In this document: piece after piece, positions 489 through 22,286 of the stretch
Position numbering within the stretch: the first letter of the stretch is position 1
Layout: each line of letters starts with the position of its first letter
The notes under the pieces: generated by a model
The model's database searches: none
What the model saw: only the letters and a program-made list of their open reading frames with translations
What the model was told of the DNA's origin: nothing
Source: a virus
IMG/VR virus record: IMGVR_UViG_3300046782_000434
Location: 1 to 30,864 of that record
Length of the DNA: 30,864 nucleotides
Reading direction: 5' to 3' (one strand)
Program-made: the position numbers and the translations under genes

Positions 489-503
489 GCTACAATCAGG
501 CCT

Positions 504-668
504 ATGCCGCTTCTAAAAGGCAAGTCAAGAGAAGTTATGTCTGAGAACATCAAGACAGAGATGCATGCTGGGAAACCTCAGAAGCAAGCTGTTGCTATTG
601 CCTATTCAGAAGCAGGATTGTCTAATAAGAATAAAGCTAAGCATGTTAGACGAATGAAAGAGGGTTAA
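504..668 (+). CDS. Small basic phage protein, [11 protein letters not shown] family
   Basis: A 54-aa ORF whose protein starts [20 protein letters not shown] and continues with [18 protein letters not shown]. This matches a widespread family of 50-70 aa phage and metagenome proteins that share the pattern P-L-x-K-G-K-S followed by [12 protein letters not shown]. Their function is unknown. The protein is strongly basic, which would suit nucleic-acid binding, but that is inference. It is followed after 4 bases by the gene at 673, so the two probably form a small operon. The upstream ribosome site is weak (AGG five bases before the ATG). The family resemblance is what makes this short ORF credible. 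Confidence 0.75.
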
Positions 669-672
669 AAAA

Positions 673-942
673 ATGGCAATGACACCAAGACATCCAACAG
701 CTCGTTTTGAAGGGGAACATCCTAGTCATAAAATGGAGTCTGATGTTGAGCGTAAAGACGCCGACGAAGGTCCAGAGGTCTCTGAACCTGATCATGGCTA
801 TAAAGTAGACAAGTCTGTCTACATGAAGCCACAGGGGCAGCCTGTTCAATTTGAAGAATCTGAAATGGCAGCTAGGCGCGGAGAGAAATCAAAGATGGCT
901 CCTAAGCTTGGCGATGGCTATTTCAAAGGCCAAGGCTACTAA
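673..942 (+). CDS. Hypothetical hydrophilic protein
   Basis: An 89-aa ORF with a good ribosome site (AGAGGG, eight bases before ATG 673). The product is very hydrophilic, rich in Glu, Lys, Asp, Gly and Pro, with no hydrophobic core, membrane segment or cysteine, so it is probably largely disordered. It begins MAMTPRHPTARFEGEHP and ends GDGYFKGQGY. I do not recognise a family. It sits 4 bases after the 54-aa basic protein and converges with the leftward 60-aa gene; the two stop codons overlap at 939-942. A virion-associated or DNA-packaging accessory role is possible but not supported by any motif. Confidence 0.6.
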   Translation: MAMTPRHPTARFEGEHPSHKMESDVERKDADEGPEVSEPDHGYKVDKSVYMKPQGQPVQFEESEMAARRGEKSKMAPKLGDGYFKGQGY

Positions 943-1121
943 ATACCCATCTCTGGGTGTTCTTTAAGCCACTTCCATAGCTTTTTTTGATTCATATTAA
1001 GTGAGCCCGTCTCGAGGCTTACTAAGCTATGTCTAGATAATAGCTTTAGTTCCCCAAGTTGCTGACGAAGCTCTAGGAGCTCATCGTGCTCAGTGTACGG
1101 CGGCTCTAGGCGTTCGGTCAT
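939..1121 (-). CDS. Hypothetical small helical protein
   Basis: A 60-aa ORF whose ATG directly follows the stop codon of the 652-aa gene, with no gap, so it is probably translated from the same message. The product (MTERLEPPYTEHDELLELRQQL...) has a Leu-rich amphipathic helix at about residues 13-35 (DELLELRQQLGELKLLSRHS) that could form a short coiled coil. The C-terminal part is Lys/Trp-rich (KKLWKWLKEHP). No family is recognised. By position it could be a small chaperone or accessory protein of the large lyase-like protein upstream, since small ORFs after fibre or depolymerase genes often are, but this is position-based inference only. Confidence 0.55.
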   Translation of the reverse strand: MTERLEPPYTEHDELLELRQQLGELKLLSRHSLVSLETGSLNMNQKKLWKWLKEHPEMGI

Positions 1122-3080
1122 TTACCAAGATTTCCAATTGTCATTATCGCAGAAGAACTGCCCAGGCTGTGGGACTTGGTCTGCATCAATGATTGGCTTT
1201 ACATGAGTCAGAATGAACTGAGAACCAGGCAAGTTAGGATACTTAGATGCAAGCATCACCCATCCAGCCCACCACGAAACTCCAATTCCACCTAGCTGCT
1301 GAGTAGCAGGCGCTGCAAACTGGAAGTAAGTAATAGGAGTTCCTGCTTCAGTGAAATATTTATCAACAAAGTCTAAGTATCTTAAATCAGCAACAGACTG
1401 ATCAAGCATAGCTTCAACTTCCATATGGAATCCAGTTTGCCAACCAACAGCAACTTCAGATGGGCACCAACCTGAAAGACCGTTATTTACTCTTGGATCA
1501 CAGCCATCAAATGGGCAACAACCTGCGATATTAGAGAGCGCTAGTCTCTGCGTCACTGCAGTCTTAAAGATCTCATGCTTATCGTTAGCTAAAGGAAGTA
1601 ATGCTGGAAGGAAATGAGCTAGGCCATAAGCACACTTAAGAGTTCTAGTTCCTCGTTCGGCTTCAATATTTGGCTGCCACTTCGTAAAGAAGTCAAAAGC
1701 TATAAGTGAGCCATAATAAGTAAGAACGTCTTCAAGATATGGGTCGCCTGTCAATTCGTAACAAGCTTGTAAGTGATTGATGGACCAGTGTTGGTTGTCA
1801 TACCCACCCCAGTTATCAAAGTTACCTGGGTTATAGTTCCCTGAACGACTAATCCATGCGGGATATTCAGCATTCCAGGAAGAATCAAAATGAGGCCTAG
1901 AACCCCAAAAGAACAGATTGGGATAAGTCGATAATCTACACCTCTCCATTATCCCATTAATAGAATCCCAGTAAAAACTTGGTCTAAAGCATTCTCGATA
2001 AACACTTAACAAGACTCGACCAAACTGCTTAGTCGAATAGCACTGCAAGCTCTTAAGAAGAGCGACTGGCATTCCTGATGCAAAATCAGGTTGAGCCCCC
2101 GTATTTGGCGGGTTCTGGCATATATGCCCTAGATAGTCTTTAGGTTGAGCAATCGGAAAACTAACTTGAGAATCGATCTGGTTCTTTACGCTAATGGTAC
2201 TAAGAACGTCAAAGCGAGGAGCTGGGAGCTCAAAGCCATTTAATAGAGCGTGAGTTCTCTTATATTCCCCGTACCACTCAAACCCAACTAGCTCACACTG
2301 AGAGCGTGCCTGTGCTGTGGAACTAAATGTTTGGTCGCTAGATGCTGATAAGAAGTACTTAAGAGCTAAGGTCTGGCCATCAGCTAATGTGACGTTCTTA
2401 TTTCCAAAGCTCGCATCGTTTTGGAGCCACATCGGATATTGGCAATTAACGTTTAGATTATTAATTAAGAGCCCACCAGAGATAGGCATCTCTAAAGAGT
2501 CATTGCCCAGTACGAACTGAAACTGCACAACTGGATTTAAGGTCTCAATAGTTACATAAGTCGTAAGACTTAATGGTGTTCCTATAGCTGGAACGCCTTG
2601 AGTGAAGTAGCAACGGGTTCTATAAATTAAGCTACCCGGATCGGCCCTAAGAACCTTTAGCTGTCCAAGCATAGGTAAGGCATGAGCTTGAGCGCCGTTT
2701 ACAGTGCAAGATAACACTAAACTCGAGTTGATAATGTTTGCAGCATTTCCTAAGTCTGGATGAAGAACGAAGCTCTTAAGTGCATTGTTAGAAGCAAGTA
2801 ATTGCTCTTGTGCCATTTCTCCAGGCGTCAAAAAGAACGGCATCTTGATTTGAGCTAATGCAATAGATCCATCTTGCCATTTCTTAAGGACATGCCACTG
2901 ATAAGGTCTGCTTAAAGAACCGTAGCCAGTGAGATCGGTACGCTCACCCTTAGCAAAGGATATTGTGGTTGGAATCCATCCAAGAAAGGCTGCCGTCGTA
3001 GGATTGCTCACTACAACTAATTTCTCCGTCGCTATTGACTGTATATTCTCCTGAAATGGAGTGTTTGTTGGAAGCTGCAT
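1122..3080 (-). CDS. PcRGLX/YetA-like polysaccharide-active protein (putative depolymerase)
   Basis: A 652-aa protein. The N-terminal third reads like the first beta-sandwich of the exo-rhamnogalacturonan lyase/YetA-like family: a 'FAKGE' segment near residue 43, then a Q-W-H-V-L-x-x-W-x-DGSI stretch at about residues 61-73. The middle is beta-rich. The C-terminal half is helical and aromatic, with WGGYDNQHWSINHLQACYEL near residue 430, as expected for an (alpha/alpha)6 barrel that binds sugar polymers. The likely job is cleaving a surface or environmental polysaccharide, as a tail-associated or released depolymerase. The start at 3080 has a ribosome site (GAGGGG, 7-8 bases upstream). The N-terminus overlaps the upstream 104-aa gene by 131 bases in another frame. 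No signal peptide is seen. The family call is from memory of motifs; another carbohydrate-active family with the same barrel is possible. Confidence 0.55.
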   Translation of the reverse strand: MQLPTNTPFQENIQSIATEKLVVVSNPTTAAFLGWIPTTISFAKGERTDLTGYGSLSRPYQWHVLKKWQDGSIALAQIKMPFFLTPGEMAQEQLLASNNALKSFVLHPDLGNAANIINSSLVLSCTVNGAQAHALPMLGQLKVLRADPGSLIYRTRCYFTQGVPAIGTPLSLTTYVTIETLNPVVQFQFVLGNDSLEMPISGGLLINNLNVNCQYPMWLQNDASFGNKNVTLADGQTLALKYFLSASSDQTFSSTAQARSQCELVGFEWYGEYKRTHALLNGFELPAPRFDVLSTISVKNQIDSQVSFPIAQPKDYLGHICQNPPNTGAQPDFASGMPVALLKSLQCYSTKQFGRVLLSVYRECFRPSFYWDSINGIMERCRLSTYPNLFFWGSRPHFDSSWNAEYPAWISRSGNYNPGNFDNWGGYDNQHWSINHLQACYELTGDPYLEDVLTYYGSLIAFDFFTKWQPNIEAERGTRTLKCAYGLAHFLPALLPLANDKHEIFKTAVTQRLALSNIAGCCPFDGCDPRVNNGLSGWCPSEVAVGWQTGFHMEVEAMLDQSVADLRYLDFVDKYFTEAGTPITYFQFAAPATQQLGGIGVSWWAGWVMLASKYPNLPGSQFILTHVKPIIDADQVPQPGQFFCDNDNWKSW

Positions 3081-3264
3081 AATCTAACCCCTCAATCCAT
3101 CTAGCATAGTTAAGTAACCAATTACCCAAATCCCGTATCTCAGAAGGCGCAACAGTAAAGTTCTTCGACTTAGTAAACTCAGGAATAATGCATGACTCGC
3201 CGTGGAGATCTATAATCTTTAAATCAAAGTGTTCGCTTTTAAAGTTATCAGGCTTTTTATTCAA
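2950..3264 (-). CDS. Hypothetical protein overlapping the depolymerase-like gene
   Basis: A 104-aa ORF starting at a TTG (3264) that overlaps the stop of the upstream 105-aa gene, which suggests coupled translation. The first 65 residues look like a genuine folded protein: FDLKIIDLHGESCIIPEF, then VAPSEIRDLGNWLLNYARWIEG. The last 40 residues are Ser/Asn-rich and are encoded in the region that overlaps the start of the 652-aa gene by 131 bases. That overlap is large for a phage; the distal part could be a non-conserved extension created when the downstream gene was inserted. No family is recognised. Confidence 0.5.
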   Translation of the reverse strand: MNKKPDNFKSEHFDLKIIDLHGESCIIPEFTKSKNFTVAPSEIRDLGNWLLNYARWIEGLDYAASNKHSISGEYTVNSDGEISCSEQSYDGSLSWMDSNHNILC

Positions 3265-3578
3265 ACGGCACCCGAAATCTTGTGTTCAACTTTATCTGTG
3301 TAGTGAGCATCTGAAAGTCTGCCTTCTTCATAGGCTTTAGCGAGTAAAATATAGAGAATCTCTCTTGGGAACTTAAGAGACATTAAATCTGACTGATCAA
3401 GCAGGTCATTAATAACTTTATTTTTATGATCCAAACGCCCAATCCTCTTTTGCTGGGAAAGTAGCGTGGCTATGTCTACTGCGTCAACCAAAGAATAAGC
3501 AGTAGCAACTCGCATATCTCCATCGATCACATCGATTGCGCCAGTTTGCTCATAATGTTTAAGATCAAGTTCAAACAT
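3261..3578 (-). CDS. Hypothetical protein
   Basis: A 105-aa ORF, mixed alpha/beta, starting MFELDLKHYEQTGAIDVIDG with a helical C-terminal half (LKFPREILYILLAKAYEEGR). It has no cysteine cluster, signal peptide or membrane segment. It appears to be the first gene of a leftward run of four (3578 down to 939) that leads into the depolymerase-like gene; the next gene's start overlaps its stop. No family is recognised. Its 5' end lies 54 bases from the rightward gene at 3633, so a divergent promoter pair probably sits at about 3579-3632. Confidence 0.6.
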   Translation of the reverse strand: MFELDLKHYEQTGAIDVIDGDMRVATAYSLVDAVDIATLLSQQKRIGRLDHKNKVINDLLDQSDLMSLKFPREILYILLAKAYEEGRLSDAHYTDKVEHKISGAV

Positions 3579-3632
3579 GAGATGTGCTTAGCGTTAGGCT
3601 ATGTTAAATTCAATAGAAGACTGGGGAATAAA

Positions 3633-3980
3633 ATGAATATTAAGAAACCTTCAGAGTATTGTCCAAAAGAGAGCTCACTCTACGATTATCTAGGTCATTT
3701 CAGGCAATCAAAGTTCCTTGACCAAGGACATAACGACTCTAAATATCCTGGCGATGAAAGAGGCCCTGCCGATGCTTTTGAAGCTAACCAAGGGGTAGCC
3801 GATAGAGCTTCAAAATCATATGGAGTTGATTCTGTTAAGTCTTCGACCAAGGAGCCTATGGTTGATCAAGGACAGGAACAAAATAGAAAAGTGTATTTAA
3901 AAAAGATGGAGCAAGAGGCGCCTAAAAAACAAAAGCCTTTTATTAAAGCTATTCAAAAGGCCGGGAACTTTGGGTCCTAG
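3633..3980 (+). CDS. YLGHFR-motif protein, copy A
   Basis: A 115-aa protein from ATG 3633, chosen over the upstream ATG at 3546 because GGGGA sits six bases before it and because its N-terminus then aligns with two paralogs in this window. Residues 1-34 carry the shared block: M-N-I-K-K-P-S-E-Y, then YLGHFRQSKFLDQGHN. The rest is hydrophilic, Lys/Asp/Gln-rich and probably disordered. The same N-terminal block is found in the leftward genes ending at 8110 and 8367. The gene converges with the Cys-bearing gene at 3977-4207, and their stop codons share one CTAG (3977-3980). The same arrangement occurs at 8110-8113. No known function; the conserved His, Arg and Asn could bind a ligand or nucleic acid, but nothing proves it. 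Confidence 0.65.
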   Translation: MNIKKPSEYCPKESSLYDYLGHFRQSKFLDQGHNDSKYPGDERGPADAFEANQGVADRASKSYGVDSVKSSTKEPMVDQGQEQNRKVYLKKMEQEAPKKQKPFIKAIQKAGNFGS

Positions 3981-4207
3981 CCCCTTAGGCCTTCTCCATC
4001 GTTAGAATCATCCTGAAAGTCATCTAGATCTATTGGGAGTTCTCGACGTTCCACGCATTTTGTCTTCCAGGTTGGCATTTCTCCCAATAGGTCAAAGTTA
4101 ACTCGGCTTCTTTCGCACTTCTCTCGTGACATATTTGAGCAATATGCTTGAGTTTCATGAGTCAAAACGTCTTGACCTAAAACGCAGATCACAAATAGGT
4201 ATTTCAT
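3977..4207 (-). CDS. Small exported Cx7C protein, copy 1
   Basis: A 76-aa protein with a short hydrophobic N-terminus (MKYLFVICVLG) that could act as a weak signal peptide or anchor, followed by a polar Cys-bearing domain with cysteines at 23, 31 and 51. The cysteine frame C-x7-C and a Lys-Cys pair at residues 50-51 are shared with the 75-aa protein at 7886-8113, which also faces a YLGHFR gene. I infer the two are diverged paralogs. An oxidised periplasmic or surface location would suit the cysteines. The C-terminus is acidic (DLDDFQDDSNDGEG). It starts four bases inside the end of the upstream 113-aa gene, so it is probably the last gene of the leftward operon beginning at 4841. Confidence 0.6.
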   Translation of the reverse strand: MKYLFVICVLGQDVLTHETQAYCSNMSREKCERSRVNFDLLGEMPTWKTKCVERRELPIDLDDFQDDSNDGEGLRG

Positions 4208-4545
4208 GTGTCCTTCTTGATGACTTTAACGGTCTGATATTCGGTATGTTTAACCAGGCCTAGCTCCCTAATTTTAGCTTCGAGGCCAGCTTGTTTAAAT
4301 GCATCCATTCCAAGCAAGGAATCACGACTAGAGCTTTGAACAGAAACGATATGGTTAGTTGTGGCATGGGTCCCTCTTTCTAAAAGTATGGCTCGGAGTT
4401 CACGTTTACGTTCTTCGAGGCGTCTGAGGCCCAAAGAAACGTCGTAGTAGGCATTTGCGATGGCATCGTCAGAGTCGCTAGGATCGATTGTCAGTAGCTT
4501 TAGGATTTGAATAGCTAGTTCTTGGTCTTCAGTGATGGTTTTCAT
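4204..4545 (-). CDS. Hypothetical helical protein
   Basis: A 113-aa ORF in the middle of a tight three-gene leftward operon, with 4-base ATGA-type overlaps on both sides. The N-terminal half is helical and charged (LGLRRLEERKRELRAILLER at about residues 38-57) and likely forms a coiled coil; the C-terminal half ends HTEYQTVKVIKKDT. No cysteine, signal or membrane segment. No family is recognised. The tight overlaps are good evidence that it is translated. Its neighbours are a Cys-rich putative zinc-binding protein upstream and an exported Cys protein downstream. Confidence 0.6.
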   Translation of the reverse strand: MKTITEDQELAIQILKLLTIDPSDSDDAIANAYYDVSLGLRRLEERKRELRAILLERGTHATTNHIVSVQSSSRDSLLGMDAFKQAGLEAKIRELGLVKHTEYQTVKVIKKDT

Positions 4546-4841
4546 CGGTCTTCCTCTTGCCTATCGTAGGCTTCATCTGCGCCGTCATCTGGCTCGACTT
4601 CTTTCCCGCAATCTATGCAAATATTCCATTCCTTATCGATCTTAAAGTGTTGACAATTAGCTTGTTTTATAAGTTGAAGTGCTCTTGCTTTATCGATTTC
4701 AATTCGATTTGGGATAAAGATCGTGCTCTTACAAGAACAATCAAACCACCACCCGGCCATGTCCCCTGTTGGGATAGCCTTATGGTTCTCTGGTAGAACC
4801 GCATAAAAATTACCGCAATAACAAGTCTTATTGATCTTCAT
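4542..4841 (-). CDS. Putative zinc-ribbon protein
   Basis: A 99-aa protein rich in paired cysteines: C-Y-C near residue 7, C-S-C near 35, a single N-C-Q-H near 63, and C-I-D-C-G-K near 76. The last pair is a typical zinc-ribbon knuckle; the whole pattern suggests one or two zinc sites. Small zinc proteins are common in phage early regions and may bind DNA, RNA or host proteins. I prefer ATG 4841, preceded by GGAAG at good spacing, over the ATG at 4853, which lacks a clear ribosome site. The C-terminus is very acidic. It is the first gene of the leftward operon 4841-3977, and its promoter should lie in about 4850-4950. Confidence 0.6.
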   Translation of the reverse strand: MKINKTCYCGNFYAVLPENHKAIPTGDMAGWWFDCSCKSTIFIPNRIEIDKARALQLIKQANCQHFKIDKEWNICIDCGKEVEPDDGADEAYDRQEEDR

Positions 4842-4984
4842 TTGAGCTTCCATACATGGAAGTAATGCAATGTCAGTGCCAAAGCTAAGTCTTTGATTTC
4901 ATTCAATGCTCATGTGATTAAACTGTTGAACTTATGATTAATGACTAGGTCTTAAACATGTGTCTTTTAGTACCTGTACGTCTA

Positions 4985-5131
4985 AATGCGCCGACGCCCC
5001 TTTCAGACCTTGCGATCTTAATCGGGGCGTGGTTAATTGAACTTTCTTGGAACTCAATTGGGGTTAGATTTCATCTTTCAACTCAATATTTCAAGAGAAA
5101 AGTTAAGTTAGTGGACTGGCTTCCTGCAGTC
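4985..5131 (+). other. AT-rich hairpin-bearing stretch upstream of the large RNA candidate
   Basis: This part of the roughly 1-kb gene-free interval (4854-5906) has three local inverted repeats: ACGCCCC at 4994-5000 with GGGGCGT at 5024-5030; AATTGA at 5035-5040 with TCAATT at 5054-5059; and GACTG with CAGTC at about 5114-5131. A 63-codon open frame (4958-5149) crosses it but has no ribosome site. It may be the 5' part of the large RNA, a leader, or an unrelated regulatory or origin region. I see no A/T-rich iteron array or protein gene here. Confidence 0.3.
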
Positions 5132-5156
5132 AGCTCTCTGTTAGTTTAGAAAGTGG

Positions 5157-5184
5157 TTGATTCTATTAGAGATAGCTCTCTAAC
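5157..5184 (+). promoter_or_regulatory. Possible promoter with dyad operator for the large RNA
   Basis: TTGATT (5157-5162) and TCTAAC (5179-5184) are separated by 16 bases and could be weak -35 and -10 boxes. They would place a start near 5191, just before the first base of the RNA's closing helix at 5198. The spacer holds a perfect 7-bp inverted repeat with a 4-base centre (TTAGAGA, TAGC, TCTCTAA; 5166-5183), which would be an apt repressor site or, if transcribed, a hairpin. The -10 match is poor (4 of 6). Confidence 0.25.
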
Positions 5185-5190
5185 TAGGTG

Positions 5191-5825
5191 CGGATTGGTT
5201 CCTAGGTACTAGCGGACACAACATGAGAAATGGGAGAGCACAAGCCCAGAGGCTATTCTGATAAGGGCTAAGCAGGGGAATATATGCGACCGACAGGGGC
5301 TGGCTCCGGGTTTATACTGCCACGTCTGTTAGTAAAGGGATGCGTATTCTAGAGAGATTACTCCTAGAGGATTCTATGGGGGTAAGGGGGCTATTTGTTT
5401 AATACGAAGAGAGCTACCTCTAGGAACGCTCCCTCAAAAGGCATTCACCGGATTTGCCTGCCACACCCTTGAAGGGATTGTAATAGCAAGGAACGTTGAC
5501 ATTAGGTAGGACTGCTAAGATCATGGGGGGAGGGGGGGTACAGAGGTCTGCGCTTCAAGCGCAGCTTGAGTAGTACCTAAGACTAGATGAGATGCCGTTT
5601 GAGGACATGTAAGTGTCCGAGATAAGGCAATCGAATCGTCCGGCAAGAAGTAGTTCCGGGCAGCACTAAGCAGCACGGTAACCACAGGACTAAGCACTTC
5701 AAGGTACCTGACTAACACCCACCAACTACTCAGGATACTAGTAGCATGCAAGAAGTATACCTAGGAACGCTAAGGGGCCCTCCCACCCTGGCATAGCCCG
5801 GCCAGAGGGACCTGGGATGGGGTTC
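5191..5825 (+). ncRNA. Large structured RNA candidate, ROOL/GOLLD size class
   Basis: About 630 bases without a credible protein gene but full of pairing. The ends join by an 11-bp perfect helix (5198-5208 with 5758-5768). Inside are consecutive hairpins: 5243-5250/5257-5269; 5362-5370/5417-5425 (9 bp); 5439-5443/5455-5459; 5466-5468/5474-5476; 5484-5488/5513-5517; a two-tier stem 5537-5541/5573-5577 around 5548-5553/5559-5564; and a stem 5591-5596/5626-5632 enclosing 5603-5608/5613-5618 capped by a GUAA (GNRA) loop. A last long arm covers 5778-5821. CGTATT 5343-5348 with AATACG 5401-5406 would cross the 9-bp helix as a pseudoknot. Two helices need G-U pairs that exist only on the + strand, which sets the orientation. 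Size, phage setting and end-to-end closure recall ROOL and GOLLD RNAs, but I cannot match a consensus, so it may be a new class. Confidence 0.55.
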
Positions 5826-5878
5826 GTATCACTCCTCCAACTTAAATCAATCTTACTATGCTTTAGTATTCGTATCAA

Positions 5879-5900
5879 GTATACTTAGTATACAAGAGGA
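5879..5900 (+). promoter_or_regulatory. GTATAC inverted repeat and strong ribosome site before the 5907 gene
   Basis: Two GTATAC palindromes separated by TTA (5879-5893) form a compact inverted repeat immediately before AGAGGAGGGA, a near-perfect ribosome site for ATG 5907. The repeat contains TATACT (5880-5885), a good -10 box, but no clear -35 lies at the right distance. It could be an operator, or a 6-bp hairpin on the mRNA beside the ribosome site. CTCCTC at 5831-5836 could also pair with GAGGAG here. Confidence 0.35.
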
Positions 5901-5906
5901 GGGATT

Positions 5907-6089
5907 ATGAGAATACCGGAGCATATGGTGCCGTTAGTAGTTTGTAGGTGTGGGATACAGCACTGGGAGTTCCCAAAGGGAGCAAAGGTAGAGGAAGGAA
6001 GAATAGTGTTTAAGTGTGATGGTAGGGAGTGTGAGCAGGAGTTAGTGATTAAGAGTGAGACAGTTGTAGAGCCCTTAGATGTTCTTTAG
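5907..6089 (+). CDS. Small zinc-ribbon-like protein
   Basis: A 60-aa protein with C-R-C-G (Cys13, Cys15) and C-D-G-R-E-C (Cys37, Cys42) about 22 residues apart, consistent with one zinc site in a small beta ribbon. The start at 5907 has a very strong ribosome site (AGAGGAGGG). It is the first gene of the rightward operon after the large RNA candidate, and no terminator with a T-run separates them, so the RNA could read through into it. No specific family is recognised; small host-takeover or nucleic-acid-binding proteins of this build are common in phages. Confidence 0.65.
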   Translation: MRIPEHMVPLVVCRCGIQHWEFPKGAKVEEGRIVFKCDGRECEQELVIKSETVVEPLDVL

Positions 6090-6163
6090 GTCTTAGGAAG
6101 AAGAATAGGCATAGGTAGCTTGGCATGAGGAGTGCAGTAGGTACTTCTTAGGAGGCTACGAGA

Positions 6164-6949
6164 ATGGATCATCAGACCTTGCTAGTGTGTGCACAAGCTT
6201 TAGCACATAGCATAGCTCCAGTATTAGACCATCACGCTCCTAGAGTAATAGTTCATAAAGAGAACGAGTCTACGGTGGTAGTAGTGCATGGAAACGGTGG
6301 GTCACCACGATCTATGGATTGGATCACTGATGAGCTTGTAAGAGAGCACCACAACGTAATCCAAGTAAAGCTACCTGGACATGGAACAACTCCTAAGGAC
6401 TTAGATGGCATCGAGCTTAAAGAGTTCGTTAATGCTGTTAAACGGGCAATAGGAGAAGCTAACCTCCTTACCCCTACTCAGGTGTACGTAGCTGGCTATA
6501 GCTTCGGTGGTGCCCTTGCTATTGCTTCTAGTGAGGATTCTACAGTGCAAGGAGGGATACTCTTTGCTCCTTCTTTTGGTCCAGTGCCCATAGTTAAGAC
6601 TCTGCTTGAGCGTAAACTTAAGAAGGTTCCAGCTAATACTCTGATGGATTGGTCAGAGACTGGGTATAAGCAGATCACTTACGAGCAAGCAGATCTCTTA
6701 CTAGCTAGGAACATCGAGATGGGTTCCATAGCTCTTAAGAAGACACTTAAAGCTAAGTTCCTATTGATCTCTGGGTCTAAGGATAACTACGCAGACCCCT
6801 CTCTAGTTAAAGCGTTCTGCGATTCTAATAATTGCGAGCTCATTACTTTTGACGCGGCGCATCATGACTTACTTGGTTCTGAAAGCTTTAAGGCCACCCT
6901 CTCAGAGAAGATCAATGCTTGGAGCAAGAATATTAGGAGTACCAAATGA
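6164..6949 (+). CDS. Alpha/beta hydrolase (serine esterase/lipase type)
   Basis: A 261-aa protein with all hallmarks of the alpha/beta hydrolase fold: the oxyanion strand-turn VVVVHGNGG (about residues 38-46), LPGHG at 70-74, the nucleophile elbow GYSFGG with Ser113, a late acid in SGSKDNYAD (Asp207 or Asp211) and the histidine in DAAHH (His233 or His234). A small lid region lies at about 140-190. It should hydrolyse an ester or similar bond; the layout resembles monoacylglycerol-lipase or carboxylesterase types. No signal peptide is seen, so it acts in the cytoplasm unless released at lysis. The ribosome site TTAGGAGG is strong, and the next gene starts in the ATGA overlap. In a phage it might attack host lipids, help lysis or detoxify a compound; the substrate is not readable. 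Confidence 0.85.
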   Translation: MDHQTLLVCAQALAHSIAPVLDHHAPRVIVHKENESTVVVVHGNGGSPRSMDWITDELVREHHNVIQVKLPGHGTTPKDLDGIELKEFVNAVKRAIGEANLLTPTQVYVAGYSFGGALAIASSEDSTVQGGILFAPSFGPVPIVKTLLERKLKKVPANTLMDWSETGYKQITYEQADLLLARNIEMGSIALKKTLKAKFLLISGSKDNYADPSLVKAFCDSNNCELITFDAAHHDLLGSESFKATLSEKINAWSKNIRSTK

Positions 6950-7110
6950 ATAAGCTAAAGCTAGATACCCAGAAGATAAACGACATGCTTTCTGCTCTGT
7001 CGTTCTTTGCAAAAGAATACCCAGATAAAAGAGGCTCTTTAGCTTCTAGGAAGAACATGAAGAAGATCTCTGTAGAGCTGTGGAAGTTATTGAAGAAGTC
7101 ACAACGTTAG
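6946..7110 (+). CDS. Small hypothetical basic protein
   Basis: A 54-aa ORF whose ATG overlaps the stop of the hydrolase gene (ATGA at 6946-6949), the usual sign of coupled translation. The product is Lys-rich and helical (MNKLKLDTQKINDMLSALSF, then KNMKKISVELWKLLKKSQ). It has no cysteine, signal or membrane segment. No family is recognised. It could be a small partner of the hydrolase or a nucleic-acid-binding peptide. Confidence 0.55.
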   Translation: MNKLKLDTQKINDMLSALSFFAKEYPDKRGSLASRKNMKKISVELWKLLKKSQR

Positions 7111-7125
7111 TGTATACAGCGTAAC

Positions 7126-7263
7126 ATGAGTGATCATGTAGCTAGAGAATTAATAGAGCAACTACAGGACAATGTCCTTGAGTTAGTAAAGGATACGAAC
7201 AGGTTAATCGAGCTAATAAATAAGCTCGAAAAGCGGATCTCTCTATTAGAGGCGAAGCAATGA
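7126..7263 (+). CDS. Small coiled-coil protein
   Basis: A 45-aa ORF made almost entirely of one heptad-like helix (ELIEQLQDNVLELVKD, then RLIELINKLEKRISLLEAK), so it very probably forms a parallel coiled coil. The start at 7126 has no strong ribosome site, but the stop overlaps the start of the next gene by an ATGA (7260-7263), which supports translation of the pair. It has no membrane segment, which argues against a spanin. Function unknown; it may oligomerise with the 66-aa protein that follows, which also starts with a coiled-coil helix. Confidence 0.5.
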   Translation: MSDHVARELIEQLQDNVLELVKDTNRLIELINKLEKRISLLEAKQ

Positions 7264-7460
7264 CTAAAGACATCCTGATCAAGAAGATAAAGACGTTAGA
7301 GGAAAAGAACCAGCTTTTGCTAAATGGATTTATGGAGCTGTGGTATAAGCAGATGTCTCAAAGTAGGTGGATGGTTAAATCAACCGCACCCGAATTAACG
7401 GGTGTAAGTAGGCTCAGTCTTCGAAAGAAGTTGGATAAAGCTGAAGGGACCACACGATAA
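7260..7460 (+). CDS. Small helical protein
   Basis: A 66-aa protein with an N-terminal amphipathic helix (LIKKIKTLEEKNQLLLNG) and a basic C-terminal part with a helix-turn-like stretch (ELTGVSRLSLRKKLDKAEG). The tail resembles the end of small DNA-binding helices of Fis type, but it is too short to name. The start overlaps the previous stop (ATGA), and the stop is immediately followed by the next gene's ATG at 7461. It is a member of the rightward early-type operon. Confidence 0.55.
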   Translation: MTKDILIKKIKTLEEKNQLLLNGFMELWYKQMSQSRWMVKSTAPELTGVSRLSLRKKLDKAEGTTR

Positions 7461-7835
7461 ATGAAACCCGGTAGAGAGCTAGACGCCCTAATCGCAGAGA
7501 AGGTGATGGGAGCGACAAGGCTTCCTGGTTACAATGTGCTGACTGTCTGCAATACTGGGCGCATAAGAGATCATTGGCCTGTCCCAGATTGGGACACCGG
7601 CGAGTGTATTCCATTTTATTCAACGAACATACTCGCAGCTTGGGAAGTGGTGGAGAAGATTAAGTCCCTTACAGAATATAACGGGAAGCTTCATGCTACG
7701 CGTGAGCCTTGGTTGGTCTTCTGCACGAACCTGTCAGATATCGACGATGGCTTTAATTTGAACTTCTGGGATGTGAACCCACTCACAATCTGTTTGGCGG
7801 CCATAGAGACGATTGGTGTGTCTAACCCCTCCTAG
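7461..7835 (+). CDS. Phage ABA-sandwich domain protein
   Basis: A 124-aa protein that matches the common phage ABA-sandwich family: an N-terminal helix beginning ELDALIAEKVMG, a central tract ending in Y-S-T-N-I-x-A-A-W-E-V-V-E-K at about residues 53-66, and a C-terminal strand-helix leading to LTICLAAIETIG. These are the family's signature features. The function of the family is unknown; members lie in phage early or accessory regions and may bind small molecules or nucleic acids. The length is usual for the family. It is the last gene of the tight rightward operon that starts at 5907. Confidence 0.8.
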   Translation: MKPGRELDALIAEKVMGATRLPGYNVLTVCNTGRIRDHWPVPDWDTGECIPFYSTNILAAWEVVEKIKSLTEYNGKLHATREPWLVFCTNLSDIDDGFNLNFWDVNPLTICLAAIETIGVSNPS

Positions 7836-7885
7836 GCATGGACCGACACACTTACGCTTCTCCCAGGGGCTGTTAAAGTCTCTAT

Positions 7886-8113
7886 ATGAGGAACGTAATA
7901 GCTTTGGTCTTTGTCTGTTTGATTGCTCGTCAGCAAGGTGATGTAGATTACCTATTTAACTGGTGCTACTTCAAAACTAACAAAGAATGCTTAGAAGCTA
8001 AGGGGTTTCTAAAAGAAAAGGGTGACGAACTAAAATGTTCTTCTAAACCCGCTTTGACAGGAAAGATCAGGTATGAGCCTTTTGAGAAGAAAAAGATTCC
8101 AGAAAAGATCTAG
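7886..8113 (+). CDS. Small exported Cx7C protein, copy 2
   Basis: A 75-aa protein with a hydrophobic N-terminus (RNVIALVFVCLIA) likely to serve as a signal or anchor, then a polar domain with cysteines at 27, 35 and 51 and a Lys-rich tail. The C-x7-C spacing and the Lys50-Cys51 pair match the 76-aa protein at 3977-4207; the two also have nearly the same length. Both converge with a YLGHFR gene and share a CTAG at the stops (here 8110-8113). I infer diverged paralogs of an exported, possibly disulfide-bonded protein. The ribosome site is weak: the nearest AGGGG is 14-19 bases upstream, so the start is less certain. Confidence 0.6.
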   Translation: MRNVIALVFVCLIARQQGDVDYLFNWCYFKTNKECLEAKGFLKEKGDELKCSSKPALTGKIRYEPFEKKKIPEKI

Positions 8114-8370
8114 TCTTCGCCTCTAGCTTTATCGAGTCCCCTTTGAACATAAGCTCCGGCAGGAGACATGCCCTTGTACTTAGCTTCTTTAGCATCTGAT
8201 TTGGCTTTATCTGCTGCATCATAGCCAGCAAACATCTCTTCGCATTTGGCCTTGTCAGCTGCACCTTCACACCGGTTATGGCCCTCATTCAGGTATTTAT
8301 CCTGACGGAAGTGCCCGAGGTATGCTTGGTTGTCCATCTTAGCCCAGTCGCTTGGTTTACGAACCTTCAT
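8110..8370 (-). CDS. YLGHFR-motif protein, copy B
   Basis: An 86-aa protein beginning with the shared block: K-x-R-K-P-S-D-W-A-K, then YLGHFRQDKYLNEGHN (about residues 17-32). It then carries C-E-G-A-A-D-K-A-K-C-E-E-M-F (Cys34 and Cys43), followed by an Ala/Lys-rich helix. That Cys pattern (C-x-G-A-x-D-x3-C-x2-M-aromatic) recurs in the lipoprotein at 8673-9047. The ATG overlaps the stop of copy C (ATGA at 8367-8370), so the two paralogs are translated as a pair. No signal peptide is visible. Function unknown. Confidence 0.7.
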   Translation of the reverse strand: MKVRKPSDWAKMDNQAYLGHFRQDKYLNEGHNRCEGAADKAKCEEMFAGYDAADKAKSDAKEAKYKGMSPAGAYVQRGLDKARGED

Positions 8371-8603
8371 TTGCCTAATCCCCCTTCTTTAAGAGCCATA
8401 CCAGCATATGGACTCCTAGCCTTTAGGAATCTGATCTCTTTAGGTGAAGCAGGCTTCTTAAAAGGAGCTCCCTGCTGAGTAATACCAGGAAGTCCCGGGA
8501 AGATGTCATTGTGTCCCTGGTCTAGGTACTTATCTTCCCTAAAGTGTCCCAGGTATTCTTGGTTATTGCATTTAGCCCAATCAGAAGGTCGTCGGATATC
8601 CAT
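8367..8603 (-). CDS. YLGHFR-motif protein, copy C
   Basis: A 78-aa protein from ATG 8603, chosen over the TTG at 8621 because the N-terminus then aligns with copies A and B. It carries M-D-I-R-R-P-S-D-W-A-K, then YLGHFREDKYLDQGHN. After the block come a Gly/Pro-rich tract (IFPGLPGITQQG, shared in part with 'HND..PG' of copy A) and a basic C-terminus. It is the first gene of the leftward pair C-B. Its start is 69 bases from the divergent lipoprotein gene at 8673, so promoters for both lie in 8604-8672. Function unknown. Confidence 0.7.
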   Translation of the reverse strand: MDIRRPSDWAKCNNQEYLGHFREDKYLDQGHNDIFPGLPGITQQGAPFKKPASPKEIRFLKARSPYAGMALKEGGLGK

Positions 8604-8672
8604 GTGCCAAGTCTGACACAATTACGAAACCTAAAGAAGCTTGAGATCATAGTCATATAGGAGAACGTTGTT

Positions 8673-9047
8673 ATGAAAACTTACTTTTACCTCTCTGCCC
8701 TAACCTATGCTCTAGCCTTCATTGTGACTGGCTGTGCCTCTGGCGCTTATAAGAACTGCAAGGGTGCCCCTGATGAGTCCTACTGCCAAAAGATGTACGA
8801 CAATATCAGCGCTAAACAAGCCATGGTCCTAGACACGATTAAAGAGTTTAAGAAGGATCAGACTGAAGAAGGCTATGCGTTAGACACGGTGTGCGCTGAA
8901 GAAAAAGCCCCCCAAGCATCTTGTGTGTTTAACTGCGCTAAAGATGAGCAGCCTCATACTTGGCAAGAATGTGCACAGACATGCAGAGACATGCAGATCT
9001 CTCATAATTTTGTGGAACATTATAAAAGAACTCGGTATTCACGGTAA
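8673..9047 (+). CDS. Cys-rich lipoprotein
   Basis: A 124-aa protein with a signal peptide (MKTYFYLSALTYALAFIVTG) ending in the lipobox V-T-G-Cys21, so it should be lipid-anchored in the host membrane. The mature part has many cysteines, including C-K-G-A-P-D-E-S-Y-C-Q-K-M-Y (Cys29, Cys38) and a C-terminal group (S-C-V-F-N-C near 83, then E-C-A-Q-T-C), which suggests several disulfides. The first Cys motif has the same spacing and residues as one in YLGHFR copy B. The ribosome site AGGAGA is good. Phage lipoproteins often block superinfection or act in lysis; either is possible. It is divergent from copy C and is followed directly by the second RNA candidate. Confidence 0.75.
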   Translation: MKTYFYLSALTYALAFIVTGCASGAYKNCKGAPDESYCQKMYDNISAKQAMVLDTIKEFKKDQTEEGYALDTVCAEEKAPQASCVFNCAKDEQPHTWQECAQTCRDMQISHNFVEHYKRTRYSR

Positions 9048-9250
9048 CGTTGAGCGCAAGTCGGCACGGGAAGCTGTGGAATAGGCCTGGAGATTAGGGA
9101 CTGGTCTTGAGCCAGCGGCACATAATCGAAGCGCCCCACTGGAGACGTGCGACGAAATGGGATGAAAAAGAAACAAGGCGACTGGCGTGTCTCCCATACT
9201 GTTCGCCAGTCCGGCAGGAGTCGCGTCCTGCACTGCGCTCACCTTTTAAT
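9048..9250 (+). ncRNA. Structured small RNA candidate, about 200 nt
   Basis: The non-coding interval after the lipoprotein gene folds on paper into a closed RNA. TGAGCGCA (9051-9058) pairs with TGCGCTCA (9234-9241). GTC-G-GCACG (9060-9068) pairs with CGTGC-GAC (9146-9153) with one bulge. CTGGT (9101-9105) pairs with GCCAG (9111-9115) using a U-G pair that exists only on the + strand. GACTGGCG (9180-9187) pairs perfectly with CGCCAGTC (9204-9211), and GCAGGA (9214-9219) with TCCTGC (9226-9231). The loop of the 8-bp hairpin can pair with GGAGAC (9141-9146) or ATGGGA (9157-9162), a possible pseudoknot. CCTTTTA follows the closing stem, a modest terminator-like end. TATAAA at 9021-9026 could be its -10 box. 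It does not match the consensus I know for 6S, SRP, RNase P or tmRNA. Confidence 0.5.
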
Positions 9251-9286
9251 CCTCAAAGATAGAGAAAGTGTGTTACACGGTAAACC

Positions 9287-9388
9287 ATGTGGCGGAAACT
9301 GTGGTTGTTAATAGCCGGAATAGGATGGTTTGGGTTTTGGATATTTATTGTGTCCTACATGACAATTTATATGGTGCTGCGTGATTAG
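9287..9388 (+). CDS. 33-aa single-pass membrane protein
   Basis: A 33-aa ORF whose product is a single hydrophobic, Trp-rich helix (LWLLIAGIGWFGFWIFIVSY, about residues 5-24) with a basic N-terminus (MWRK) and a short C-tail ending LRD. It is too short for a classical holin but could be a holin-like, antiholin or membrane-toxin peptide, or a membrane anchor for a partner. Its last 8 bases overlap the GTG start of the lipoprotein gene at 9381, which suggests coupling. The ribosome site is weak (ACGG). Credible mainly for its clean transmembrane helix and overlap. Confidence 0.45.
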   Translation: MWRKLWLLIAGIGWFGFWIFIVSYMTIYMVLRD

Positions 9389-10781
9389 ATCGAAGCACTT
9401 AACTAGTATTTTAATACTACTCACAGCCTGTGCCCATACACCGGCAAGGCCGTTTAATGCTGAAGTTCAAGAATCGTGCTCTGCAATCTTTAGGGCACAG
9501 GAAGTCTCTGTTGTAAGAGAAGGGACCCTATTTACATTTAGATTCAGTCAACCAGTGGATCTTGTCTATTCAATCAACGGTGACCCACTCGTATTAGAGT
9601 CATCGACAGTTGTATCGGTAACCCCAGAAATGACTCTAGTCGGGAGTGACATCACAAACGGGATGATGAAGAACCCTCCTGTTACTCCGCAAACTTCAAA
9701 GCAAGCTTACGACAGCAGAACGCCTTATGGGTTTGATAGGACTCTACTTGCTACGTTACCGATCCAAATAAACGAAGGTGATTCCCTAGTTGTAGCGCAC
9801 TCAGAGATCCCGACAGGGCATTTCGCATTTGATGGATCTCCAAAGATCTCCTTCATAGAATCTGCAGCAGTGCTTACTGGTTGGAATAAACAAGACGTTT
9901 GTAGTTCTTACGTCCTTAGTCAGAACCGAGTCACACTGTTTAGGCCAAGTTTCTCTGGAGTAAAGCAAGCCTTTGACGGTATTCACTTTAGATTCGATAA
10001 ACTACCCATACCAATTCACATCCCAAATCCACCCAGCGTGAATTTATTCCTAGGGTCGTCTCCAAAGTTAAATCTAACTAGTTCTTCATGGGCAGGGGAA
10101 TATTGGTCTCCAAATGATTTAGGAGAAAACTATCAAGCATATCTTGGAAGACTTTGGGGTGAGCGCTTACTTCTAGCGATGGGTGACTCTGTAAACTTCG
10201 AGCAAAAGATTGAGTTATTGGTAACAGCGGTTCAGAACCAAATTGATATTGTAGGAGTACTAAAGGGGGGCGGGGGATGGCCAGCAGAAGACGGCGGAGG
10301 CCATCAAATCGGATTACTCGCTCAGATTAGATTCTTTGGTCACATGTTTGACCAGCCAGATCTCGCACACCCATTACTCAATGACGGTAAGTTTACGGAG
10401 CACAACGGACAATTTTATTTGTCTGGCCCAGGATTCTTTTACGAGCCAAATCAGAAGTCTCTTTGGCGGATGTCACTTGGTGGCGCTCCACTAATGGAGC
10501 AGAGCGCATTAAGCTGGGATGCAACCGCAAGACATTCTATGTTGTATCTCGCGTGTTGCACCGTATCTCAAAGCATGGCCGGATGGATGGCTTTATCCAT
10601 CTTGGGAGTATTTGATTCGCAGAATGATCCAGCGGACAAACAGCTCCATGATTTTACTAAATGGTATTTCGCTCCTATTAGTCCACAGTTCCAAGTAGAC
10701 GCTAATATTCCAGGACTATGGTCCTCGGTGAGCGGGATCGCGGCGCAACTCATGCCTCAGTATGGAGAAGCGTTTCGATGA
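9381..10781 (+). CDS. Large lipoprotein, possible polysaccharide-active enzyme
   Basis: A 466-aa protein starting at GTG 9381. The N-terminus has basic residues, a short hydrophobic core (LTSILILL) and a lipobox L-T-A-Cys17, so it should be exported and lipid-anchored. The first half is beta-rich (about residues 30-215); the second half is helical and aromatic, with GEYWSPNDLGENYQAYLG near 240 and a striking GGGGWPAEDGGGHQIG at about 295-311, followed by helices. The layout (beta domain plus helical barrel-like part with a Gly-rich H/D motif) recalls polysaccharide lyases and related phage proteins, but I cannot name the family. It could modify the host surface glycan to block reinfection. 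The next gene starts in the ATGA overlap. Confidence 0.6.
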   Translation: MIRSKHLTSILILLTACAHTPARPFNAEVQESCSAIFRAQEVSVVREGTLFTFRFSQPVDLVYSINGDPLVLESSTVVSVTPEMTLVGSDITNGMMKNPPVTPQTSKQAYDSRTPYGFDRTLLATLPIQINEGDSLVVAHSEIPTGHFAFDGSPKISFIESAAVLTGWNKQDVCSSYVLSQNRVTLFRPSFSGVKQAFDGIHFRFDKLPIPIHIPNPPSVNLFLGSSPKLNLTSSSWAGEYWSPNDLGENYQAYLGRLWGERLLLAMGDSVNFEQKIELLVTAVQNQIDIVGVLKGGGGWPAEDGGGHQIGLLAQIRFFGHMFDQPDLAHPLLNDGKFTEHNGQFYLSGPGFFYEPNQKSLWRMSLGGAPLMEQSALSWDATARHSMLYLACCTVSQSMAGWMALSILGVFDSQNDPADKQLHDFTKWYFAPISPQFQVDANIPGLWSSVSGIAAQLMPQYGEAFR

Positions 10782-11074
10782 GTGACTGGCAAGAAGTCGC
10801 TAAAGAGTTTGGATGGGATGCTGCAGGCGAACTTGAAGACGCGTCCAACACTGCAGCGGAGCGTATGTCTAAAGAGATCGTGAGGCTTCGGATTTGGTCA
10901 TCAGACAGCCACGTAACTGACTTGGAAGATATTCTCAAAGCCGAACGCACTTACAGCGAGAAGCTGAGAGAGGCGCTGGTTGCAGTAGACGGATGTTCAA
11001 GTCTACTCTGTGGTCAATGTCATGAACAGATTGATCTAGCTCTCGCCACGAAGCGGCCAGGAGAAGATAAATGA
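10778..11074 (+). CDS. Hypothetical small Cys-bearing protein
   Basis: A 98-aa protein from ATG 10778, which overlaps the previous stop (10779-10781) and has GGAGA upstream; the longer frame from 10718 would lie wholly within the lipoprotein gene. The N-terminus (MSDWQEVAKEFGWDAAGELE) and middle are helical, with a predicted amphipathic helix at about 50-70. Near the C-terminus is C-S-S-L-L-C-G-Q-C, which could bind a metal. The following gene overlaps by four bases. No family is recognised. Confidence 0.6.
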   Translation: MSDWQEVAKEFGWDAAGELEDASNTAAERMSKEIVRLRIWSSDSHVTDLEDILKAERTYSEKLREALVAVDGCSSLLCGQCHEQIDLALATKRPGEDK

Positions 11075-11271
11075 GTGACTTCTGTAAGCAGTGCTCAATA
11101 AAAATATTTAAGGAAGACTTTAAAGACCTTGCAGGGTTGGGGCAACGGGCGGAAGTTCTTTGCGAAGAATGTGGCCCGATATTTGTAAACATGGATGGGG
11201 AGCGCATGGGCACAAGCGACAAAGAGCCGTATGAATTTTTCGAGATTAAAGCCCCAGGGGAGGAGAGGTGA
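11071..11271 (+). CDS. Phage zinc-ribbon protein, MSDFCKQCS family
   Basis: A 66-aa protein with Cys5-x2-Cys8 and Cys31-x2-Cys34 in the contexts F-C-K-Q-C and C-E-E-C-G-P. This pattern, with EDFKDLAGL between, matches a family of small phage zinc-ribbon proteins that I have seen repeatedly in phage accessory regions. Function unknown. It overlaps its neighbours by four bases on each side, so it is part of the same operon (10778-11865). Confidence 0.75.
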   Translation: MSDFCKQCSIKIFKEDFKDLAGLGQRAEVLCEECGPIFVNMDGERMGTSDKEPYEFFEIKAPGEER

Positions 11272-11480
11272 AGATTGCAGAAATTCTAAAACTCTACTTG
11301 GCGATTAAAGGCGTCACAATTCGTGAATTTGGTAAAGAGATAGGGATATCTGGTTCTACTGTAAGTCGGATTACAAATGGTGGAGTTATGGATCTTTACA
11401 CGTATCTTAAATTGAATTCATGGTTGTTTGGTGAAACAAATCATCCCGGAATTGTGAGGTCGAAATGCCAGAAGAACTAA
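11268..11480 (+). CDS. XRE-type helix-turn-helix regulator
   Basis: A 70-aa protein that reads as a minimal Cro/C1-type DNA-binding domain: helix 1 (AEILKLYLAIKG), helices 2-3 (TIREFGKEIGISGSTVSRI, about residues 17-35; the last is the recognition helix) and two further helices (TYLKLNSWLFG). It starts at a GTG overlapping the previous stop, with GGAGGAGAG as a strong ribosome site. It likely binds an operator as a dimer and controls nearby phage promoters; the dyads in the 5166-5183 and 12166-12173 intervals are candidate sites, though this is unproven. Its end overlaps the next gene by 16 bases. Confidence 0.75.
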   Translation: MKIAEILKLYLAIKGVTIREFGKEIGISGSTVSRITNGGVMDLYTYLKLNSWLFGETNHPGIVRSKCQKN

Positions 11481-11650
11481 ATGTTAACATCACGGGCGGC
11501 CCTAAAATTACCCTGCCATCTGTTACGGAAGCCGCCATGCAAACCCTGGATGTTCTCTTAGGTGTGACTAATGTTCTTGAGAAGATGTGGTCGGCGAATA
11601 TTGGGGCCACTTACAATATTGAAGTAGATACAGATAAGTTAATCAAATGA
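11465..11650 (+). CDS. Hypothetical small protein
   Basis: A 61-aa protein, starting at ATG 11465 with GAGG five bases upstream and overlapping the regulator's end by 16 bases. It has a beta-strand N-terminus (LNVNITGGPKITLP), a helix (SVTEAAMQTLDVLLGVTNVLEKMW) and a strand at the C-terminus. No cysteine or signal. Its stop overlaps the next start (11647). No family is recognised. Confidence 0.55.
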   Translation: MPEELNVNITGGPKITLPSVTEAAMQTLDVLLGVTNVLEKMWSANIGATYNIEVDTDKLIK

Positions 11651-11865
11651 AATTGATTCTAGAATTCGATCTTCCAGACGACCAAGAGGAGTTTGAGATT
11701 CATAAAAAGGCCTTAGCCATGGACGCTATGATTAACGAATTCAATAATTATATAAGGGCAGAGATTAAGTACAAAGAGCCTAAACATAGGGCTAGTGTCC
11801 AAGAGATCTATCAAGAGTGGCATGAACGTCTCGAATCAATTGGAACAAGCCCGTCAAAAACTTGA
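11647..11865 (+). CDS. Small acidic phage protein, MKLILEFDLPDDQEE family
   Basis: A 72-aa protein starting MKLILEFDLPDDQEEFEIHK, a start shared by a large family of phage proteins of 70-100 aa with the pattern [IV]-x-F-x-L-P-[ED]-D-x-E-E followed by helices. Their function is unknown; they are found in early or accessory operons. The rest is helical, with an internal EFNNYIRAEIKYK segment. It is the last gene of the operon beginning at 10778 and is followed by a hairpin with a T-rich tail at 11894-11917. Confidence 0.75.
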   Translation: MKLILEFDLPDDQEEFEIHKKALAMDAMINEFNNYIRAEIKYKEPKHRASVQEIYQEWHERLESIGTSPSKT

Positions 11866-11893
11866 TATTTAACTGGCTTGGTTTATTCTTATT

Positions 11894-11917
11894 GAAGCGA
11901 TTAGGGCTTCTCTCTTT
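11894..11917 (+). terminator. Possible intrinsic terminator of the 10778-11865 operon
   Basis: GAAGC (11894-11898) and GCTTC (11906-11910) form a 5-bp stem with a 7-base loop, followed by TCTCTTT. The stem is short and the tail imperfect, but its place, just after the last gene of a rightward operon and before a leftward gene, supports a stop in transcription. Confidence 0.4.
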
Positions 11918-11919
11918 GG

Positions 11920-11952
11920 CTCGGGGCAGCGCACAAGGACGTGCCTCCCGAG
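11920..11952. terminator. Two-tier hairpin between convergent genes
   Basis: CTCGGG (11920-11925) pairs with CCCGAG (11947-11952), and inside it GCAC (11931-11934) with GTGC (11941-11944). It lies between the convergent genes ending at 11865 and 11957. No clear T-run follows on either strand, so it may be a pause or protein-bound terminator, or a 3' end stabiliser. Confidence 0.35.
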
Positions 11953-11956
11953 TGCT

Positions 11957-12136
11957 TTAAGCCTTAGCCTTACGTTTCTTTCCAGCCGAAGCCATCTTAG
12001 CCATTTTTTCTTTACCGAATTTTTTACGTCCCACCGCAGCGGCAACAGCCTTAGGATTCTTAACCCCGCCCTTAGCTTTAAGCTGTTCGACCATATTCTT
12101 GAATCGTTTACCTGAACCTAATTTAGGCTTAGCCAT
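11957..12136 (-). CDS. Very basic small protein (MAKPKLGSGKRF...)
   Basis: A 59-aa protein, nearly one third Lys/Arg, starting MAKPKLGSGKRFKNMVEQLK and continuing with GGVKNPKAVAAAVGRKKFG and a Lys-rich tail. It matches a recognisable class of short phage proteins with G-[VI]-x-[ND]-P-x-A-[VL]-A-A-x-[VI]-G-R-K-K-[FY]-G. The function is unknown; a DNA-binding or condensing role is plausible from charge alone. The ribosome site GGAGATAAAGAA lies well placed. It stands alone on the - strand, divergent from the structural module at 12201. Confidence 0.75.
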   Translation of the reverse strand: MAKPKLGSGKRFKNMVEQLKAKGGVKNPKAVAAAVGRKKFGKEKMAKMASAGKKRKAKA

Positions 12137-12156
12137 TTCTTTATCTCCGAGTTACG

Positions 12157-12185: not shown

Positions 12186-12200
12186 ATTACAGGGGTTAAG

Positions 12201-22279: not shown

Positions 22280-22286
22280 TTATTGA

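What the first reader, a model, noticed from the sequence alone, without database searches (positions are those of the whole stretch)
5191..5825. Large structured non-coding RNA closed by an 11-bp end-to-end helix
The longest gene-free part of the window has at least nine local helices, an 11-bp perfect pairing between its two ends (5198-5208 with 5758-5768), a GNRA-capped stem at 5603-5618 and G-U pairs that work only on the + strand. Size and setting match ROOL/GOLLD giant RNAs of phages, some of which form multimeric cages; I see no clear match to either, so a new class is possible.
Basis: partly seen in the sequence, partly recalled or inferred. Interest (0 to 1): 0.85.

Follow-up and report, generated by a model that had tools for sequence, protein, structure and literature searches.

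The report
Gene-free phage region, giant RNA unproven
This 1-kb stretch of an uncultivated phage really contains no genes and has an unusually G+C-rich middle with one well-folding patch, but its folding is otherwise no better than that of ordinary sequence in the same phage and no relative was found, so it is most simply the control region between two oppositely read gene blocks; a giant structured RNA is neither shown nor excluded.

Summary
The window is a phage record from IMG/VR. The 11-bp end-to-end complementarity (5198-5208/5758-5768) and the GUAA-capped stem (5603-5618) are present as described. The stretch sits in the only long gene-free gap (4854-5906, 1053 bp), between leftward and rightward genes. 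It is non-coding: every frame carries stops and there is no codon periodicity. It is also the most G+C-rich 635-nt stretch in the record (0.515), between AT-rich flanks.

The claim of a large structured RNA fails most tests. The fold energy of 5191-5825 is z -1.4 on + and -1.5 on -. Trimmed to the closing helix, it ranks 8th of 53 windows in its own genome. Hairpin number is at chance, and structure is no stronger on + than on -. A transcribed phage lncRNA (phage K lnc001) scores z -3 to -5.8 in the same test. Rfam gives no match and there are no tRNAs nearby. No relative of the stretch turned up in phages, plasmids, IMG/VR motif scans or the phage's own capsid relatives, so covariation cannot be tested.

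One domain, 5534-5638, folds convincingly (z about -3.5 to -5), on both strands. Capsid relatives also carry unrelated ~1-kb gaps at divergent gene junctions. Best reading: an early divergent control region with a G+C-rich, possibly transcribed, untranslated body.

The parts
4854..5906 (.). gene-free divergent intergenic region between leftward and rightward genes
5191..5825 (+). G+C-rich (0.515) non-coding body; best single G+C segment of the gap is 5175-5839
5198..5208 (+). 5' arm of the 11-bp end-to-end helix (GTTCCTAGGTA); near-palindrome GTTCCTAGGTAC
5758..5768 (+). 3' arm of the end-to-end helix (TACCTAGGAAC)
5208..5333 (+). predicted domain closed by a 10-bp helix 5208-5217/5324-5333
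   Evidence: mean pair probability 0.96; prediction only
5334..5436 (+). predicted three-way-junction domain closed by a ~17-bp interrupted helix; z -3.7, boundaries chosen after the fact
   Evidence: fixed 105-nt windows over it reach only z -1.4
5534..5638 (+). best-supported local structure: two adjacent hairpin domains
   Evidence: z -5.0 (+) and -4.0 (-); z -3.5 (+) and -4.0 (-) with 200 shuffles on 5521-5640
5548..5564 (.). 17-nt perfect palindrome CTGCGCTTCAAGCGCAG, the longest perfect palindrome found in the window
5603..5618 (+). 6-bp stem with GUAA (GNRA) loop
5420..5430 (+). direct repeat copy 1, CTAGGAACGCT
5761..5771 (+). direct repeat copy 2, CTAGGAACGCT
5879..5893 (.). 15-nt perfect palindrome GTATACTTAGTATAC just before the RBS of the first rightward gene; operator-like
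   Evidence: position read from sequence
4542..4853 (-). first leftward gene, 103 aa, cysteine-rich, no family
5907..6089 (+). first rightward gene, 60 aa, CxC and cysteine pair, strong RBS AGAGGAGG

Best explanation
A divergent early control region of an uncultivated phage. The AT-rich left part (4854-5190) and right edge (5826-5906) would carry the promoters and operators for the leftward and rightward gene blocks. The palindrome GTATACTTAGTATAC (5879-5893) would be a repressor or activator site for the gene at 5907, possibly bound by a phage helix-turn-helix protein such as the one at 11268-11480. The G+C-rich middle (5191-5825) is probably transcribed rightward as an untranslated leader or modest non-coding RNA. 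Its folded domain at 5534-5638 would act locally, for instance on RNA stability, termination or protein binding, rather than as part of one giant fold. SHOWN: non-coding, divergent setting, G+C island, palindromes, one well-folding domain. INFERRED: promoters, transcription, operator function, the role of the domain.
For: Divergent gene layout and a 1053-bp gap. Non-coding character. Two capsid-related phages have equally long gaps between a leftward and a rightward gene (G011 950 bp, G017 1011 bp) with no sequence similarity to this one, so a long divergent gap recurs in the family independently of this sequence. The only two perfect palindromes of 7 or more pairs outside genes lie here. A small HTH regulator gene is present (11268-11480). 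The whole-region fold is ordinary. AT-rich flanks surround a G+C-rich, purine-rich body. The cumulative GC-skew minimum at ~4.5-5 kb fits a transcription divergence point.
Against: No promoter or terminator was found beyond chance (the host and so its promoter type are unknown). Promoters and operators need at most 100-200 bp, so they do not explain why 635 bp of G+C-rich non-coding sequence is kept. The unlikely long-range helix is left as coincidence. There are no transcription data.
Confidence: 0.5

Rival explanations
1. A discrete large structured phage RNA of a new, lineage-specific class on the + strand. Its two ends pair (5198-5206/5760-5768), enclosing a 5208-5333 domain, a 5336-5434 three-way domain and a 5512-5744 multihelix domain.
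For: End helix probability 0.92-1.0 over 9 bp, and no shuffle of 1000 has arms as long 500 nt apart. Most G+C-rich 635 nt of the record although non-coding. Subdomains z -3.5 to -3.7 and -5.0. The trimmed closed segment is better than 97.5% of shuffles on +.
Against: Equal z on the antisense strand. Rank 8 of 53 windows in its own genome. Hairpin number at chance. 300-nt windows over the region are -1.25 or weaker on +. A transcribed phage lncRNA reaches -3 to -5.8 on its own strand. No homologue, terminator or promoter found.
Confidence: 0.22
2. Remnant or recent insertion: a G+C-richer piece of DNA, for example a decayed gene or acquired fragment, without present function.
For: G+C jump at both borders (0.389/0.515/0.333). 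No relative anywhere, in a record whose whole 0.5-12 kb part lacks relatives in the family. No energy signal overall.
Against: No trace of codon periodicity or protein family in its open frames. Phage genomes tend to lose functionless DNA (general knowledge). Well-folded domain and perfect palindromes are kept.
Confidence: 0.15
3. DNA-level element, such as a replication origin or packaging/partition site, whose palindromes and repeats act as DNA.
For: Symmetric folding on both strands, as palindromic DNA gives. Cumulative GC-skew minimum at the gap. Perfect palindromes and inverted CCTAGG-centred copies.
Against: No iteron-like tandem repeats. The G+C-rich body is unlike an unwinding element. 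Skew minimum and palindromes are equally explained by divergent transcription and operators.
Confidence: 0.12

Closest known systems
ROOL RNA (Rumen-Originating, Ornate, Large)
   Same: Phage-borne, non-coding, similar size (~600 nt), ends predicted to pair
   Different: No covariance-model match even at E up to 10; no tRNAs nearby; no homologues or covariation; weak fold energy
[quoted passage not shown]
   Same: Phage-borne and non-coding
   Different: Shorter than the >800 nt of many members (PMC12286853); no model match; no tRNA setting; no conserved 3' region detectable
Phage K lnc001 (long non-coding RNA of Kayvirus; PMC9241854)
   Same: ~1-kb gene-free phage stretch without an Rfam match
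   Different: lnc001 is transcribed from its own promoter next to tRNAs and folds at z -3 to -5.8 with strand bias; this stretch does not
Divergent early control regions of phages (lambda-type divergent promoter/operator regions and leader RNAs; general knowledge)
   Same: Leftward and rightward blocks diverge from one AT-rich, palindrome-bearing gap; HTH regulator encoded in the phage; two capsid relatives have similarly long divergent gaps
   Different: Unusually long, with a G+C-rich 0.64-kb body; promoters and operators not demonstrated

Membership tests
ROOL | Match to the Rfam covariance model (sequence + structure) | tested here: not met
   no match at gathering, none for ROOL at E up to 10 on 4850-5950
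ROOL | Often located near tRNA islands in phages/prophages | tested here: not met
   no tRNA or tmRNA in the 30.9-kb window; PMC12286853
ROOL | Homo-octameric cage | not testable with these tools
   needs cryo-EM or mass photometry
GOLLD | Match to the Rfam covariance model, with conserved 3' region | tested here: not met
Large structured phage ncRNA (generic) | Non-coding stretch of >500 nt | tested here: met
   also no single long frame under TAG=Q or code 4
Large structured phage ncRNA (generic) | Fold clearly better than shuffled and stronger on the transcribed strand | tested here: not met
   positive control phage K lnc001 meets it
Large structured phage ncRNA (generic) | Covariation among homologues | tested here: inconclusive
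   no homologue found:
Large structured phage ncRNA (generic) | Discrete transcript with own promoter and terminator | tested here: inconclusive
   promoter- and terminator-like sites only at chance level; no RNA-seq available
Divergent early control region | Gene blocks diverging from the gap | tested here: met
   same layout in G011 and G017
Divergent early control region | Functional promoters/operators | tested here: inconclusive
   palindrome 5879-5893 and an HTH gene, but promoter scan at chance

The most novel reading that the evidence does not exclude
A previously undescribed, lineage-specific giant phage RNA of ~570 nt, closed by an end-to-end helix and built of three multihelix domains. 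It would occupy the divergent gap that related phages also keep, with rapidly changing sequence.
Probability: 0.15. Interest if true: 0.65.

Novelty: new member of a known kind. Interest (0 to 1): 0.25.

Why it matters
If it were a new giant RNA it would add a class to the very few large RNAs that may assemble without protein, in a phage lineage with many uncultivated relatives. As tested, it mainly shows that a striking long-range complementarity and a list of hand-picked helices do not establish a large structured RNA. The same fold test does recover a real phage lncRNA. The long gap at the divergence point of several relatives is worth following by transcriptomics.

Tried and rejected
Homologue hunts that gave nothing: blastn of 4900-5900 and 5191-5825 against phages and plasmids (the best at E 2-8 are 23-30-nt chance pieces). 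Exact motif scans of IMG/VR: TACCTAGGAACGCTAAG, 0 hits; GTTCCTAGGTACTAG, 11 hits, and CCTAGGAACGCTAA, 27 hits, none with similarity beyond the motif. Searches by the esterase-like protein and the 466-aa protein next door found no relatives. The capsid alignment found 80 related loci, but the left 12 kb has no counterpart there apart from the RusA-like gene at 6-488, found in 3 loci. The genome-collection scan with the capsid gave none. The 652-aa leftward protein has one distant relative, in a Kofleriaceae MAG, without the RNA stretch. The covariance model of 5538-5640 found only itself in 1.39 Mb of family sequence and controls. The 34-nt match in one of 237 genomes (E 0.004 per genome) is expected by chance. 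The 19-nt match in the relative G001 lies near the end of its contig but is inverted and not beyond chance. A long reading frame under recoded stops was rejected. A first sliding-window script timed out. Two genome-search calls failed on a handle form. An exact two-arm gap pattern was not accepted by the search tool.

Full report
WHERE IT IS. The window is a 30,864-base virus record. Its right part (12.2-30.8 kb) carries a phage structural block: large terminase 16275-17798, head-tail connector 17746-19656, major head protein 20879-21832. The head protein alignment brought 80 related loci from IMG/VR at 55-78% identity, so the phage belongs to a populous uncultivated group. Of the left 12 kb only the first gene (6-488, RusA-like) has a counterpart there, in 3 loci. 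Every protein tested between 1122 and 11865 lacks a relative in those loci. The stretch in question lies in this orphan part.

THE OBSERVATION. The gap 4854-5906 is 1053 bp without a credible gene, by far the longest in the window (next 306 bp). It lies between leftward genes ending at 4853 and rightward genes starting at 5907. All six frames are closed by many stops, no ORF of 30 aa or more has a ribosome-binding site, codon-position composition is flat, and recoding TAG or TGA does not open one long frame. The 11-bp arms are exactly where stated, and 9 of the pairs are predicted at 0.92-1.0. In shuffles, such arms 300 or more nt apart appear in 1.3%, and 500 or more nt apart in 0 of 1000. 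The core CCTAGG is self-complementary, so any two copies give six pairs for free; in this AT-leaning record there are seven copies, two of them here.

IS IT A LARGE STRUCTURED RNA? For 5191-5825 the minimum free energy is -210.7 kcal/mol on + against shuffles of -201.0 (sd 6.9; z -1.40), and -192.5 on - against -183.4 (z -1.49). Trimmed to the closing helix (5198-5768), z is -2.13 (+) and -2.28 (-). In this record's own windows of the same size it ranks 8th of 53 (+) and 10th of 53 (-). Hairpin number is at chance on both strands. 300-nt windows across it are -1.25 or weaker on +. [quoted passage not shown] It reaches z -2.95 to -5.75 on the transcribed strand and less on the other, and it too has no Rfam match. 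So the method sees a real phage lncRNA, and a missing Rfam match alone means little.

WHAT DOES STAND OUT. First, one local domain, 5534-5638 (two adjacent hairpins, one on a 17-nt perfect palindrome, one with a GUAA loop), has z -5.0 on + and -4.0 on - with 14 shuffles. It is second on + among 15 independent domains of z -3 or lower in the window; with 200 shuffles the slightly larger 5521-5640 gives -3.5 (+) and -4.0 (-). G+C-rich non-coding bodies are typical of RNA genes in AT-leaning genomes, but phage K lnc001 shows no such island, so this is suggestive only. The capsid relative G011 has a 950-bp divergent gap that also holds the most G+C-rich stretch of its 20-kb locus, without fold signal on its + strand and only z about -2.6 on the other.

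RELATED SEQUENCES. No similarity to the stretch was found in 50,697 phage records, 72,556 plasmids, the capsid relatives' records, or 237 genomes of the phylum of the one genome that encodes a distant relative of the 652-aa leftward protein. A covariance model of 5538-5640 finds only itself. Gaps of similar length exist at divergent gene junctions in G011 (950 bp) and G017 (1011 bp) but are unrelated in sequence. Long divergent gaps are thus a habit of the group. No Rfam family reaches threshold in the window or in 384 kb of relatives.

HOW IT MOST LIKELY WORKS. The simplest account is an early divergent control region: promoters and operators in the AT-rich edges, with a perfect palindrome GTATACTTAGTATAC just ahead of the ribosome-binding site of the gene at 5907, and a phage HTH regulator at 11268-11480 as candidate binder. 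The G+C-rich middle would be an untranslated, probably rightward-transcribed leader or modest RNA whose 5534-5638 domain acts locally. Transcription, operator function and the role of the domain are inferred. A single giant fold remains possible and is given 0.22 (0.15 for the full new-class reading).

COMPARISON. ROOL and GOLLD are excluded as families by the covariance models at permissive thresholds and differ in setting: there are no tRNAs here, whereas both are often found near tRNA islands (PMC12286853). Whether it works like them, as an RNA-only assembly, was not testable.

VERDICT. Real non-coding region, partly confirmed observation, interpretation undecided and leaning to ordinary. 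Interest 0.25.

Noticed in passing
window 489-12200: Apart from the RusA-like gene at 6-488 (counterparts in 3 loci), the whole left third of the record has no relative in 80 capsid-related loci. It includes a 652-aa protein (1122-3080) without any family whose only relative is in a Kofleriaceae MAG (31% identity, E 1e-66), and putative lipoproteins at 8673-9047 and 9381-10781, which may hint at a deltaproteobacterial-type host.
   Followed up: partly
window 4921-5060, - strand: Hairpin with ACGCCCC/GGGGCGT stem and an inner GCAA-capped stem upstream of the leftward genes (z -3.5, 0 of 200 shuffles); possible structured leader of the leftward transcript.
   Followed up: partly
window 22285-22330: Strong intergenic hairpin GTATTGGGGG..CCCCCAATAC between two structural genes (window z -6.0, the strongest + strand local fold), without a T-run; terminator- or processing-site-like.
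   Followed up: no
L141:13480-13860: In relative G015 a gene-free stretch holds two adjacent long hairpins inside a closed domain (z -6.5 over 381 nt, -8.7 in the best 300-nt window). A far better structured-RNA candidate than the finding itself; no copy in other loci.
   Followed up: partly
L046:3344-4293 and L146:5613-6623: Relatives G011 and G017 also have ~1-kb gene-free gaps at a divergent gene junction; in G011 it holds the most G+C-rich stretch of that locus.
   Followed up: partly
window 6164-6949: Alpha/beta hydrolase (Hydrolase_4/Abhydrolase_6) second in the rightward early block, unusual cargo for an early phage operon.
   Followed up: no
window 29124-29917: Two adjacent acetyltransferase-like (GNAT-type by eye) genes near the end of the structural block; the first matches phrog_17252 of unknown function.
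   Followed up: no
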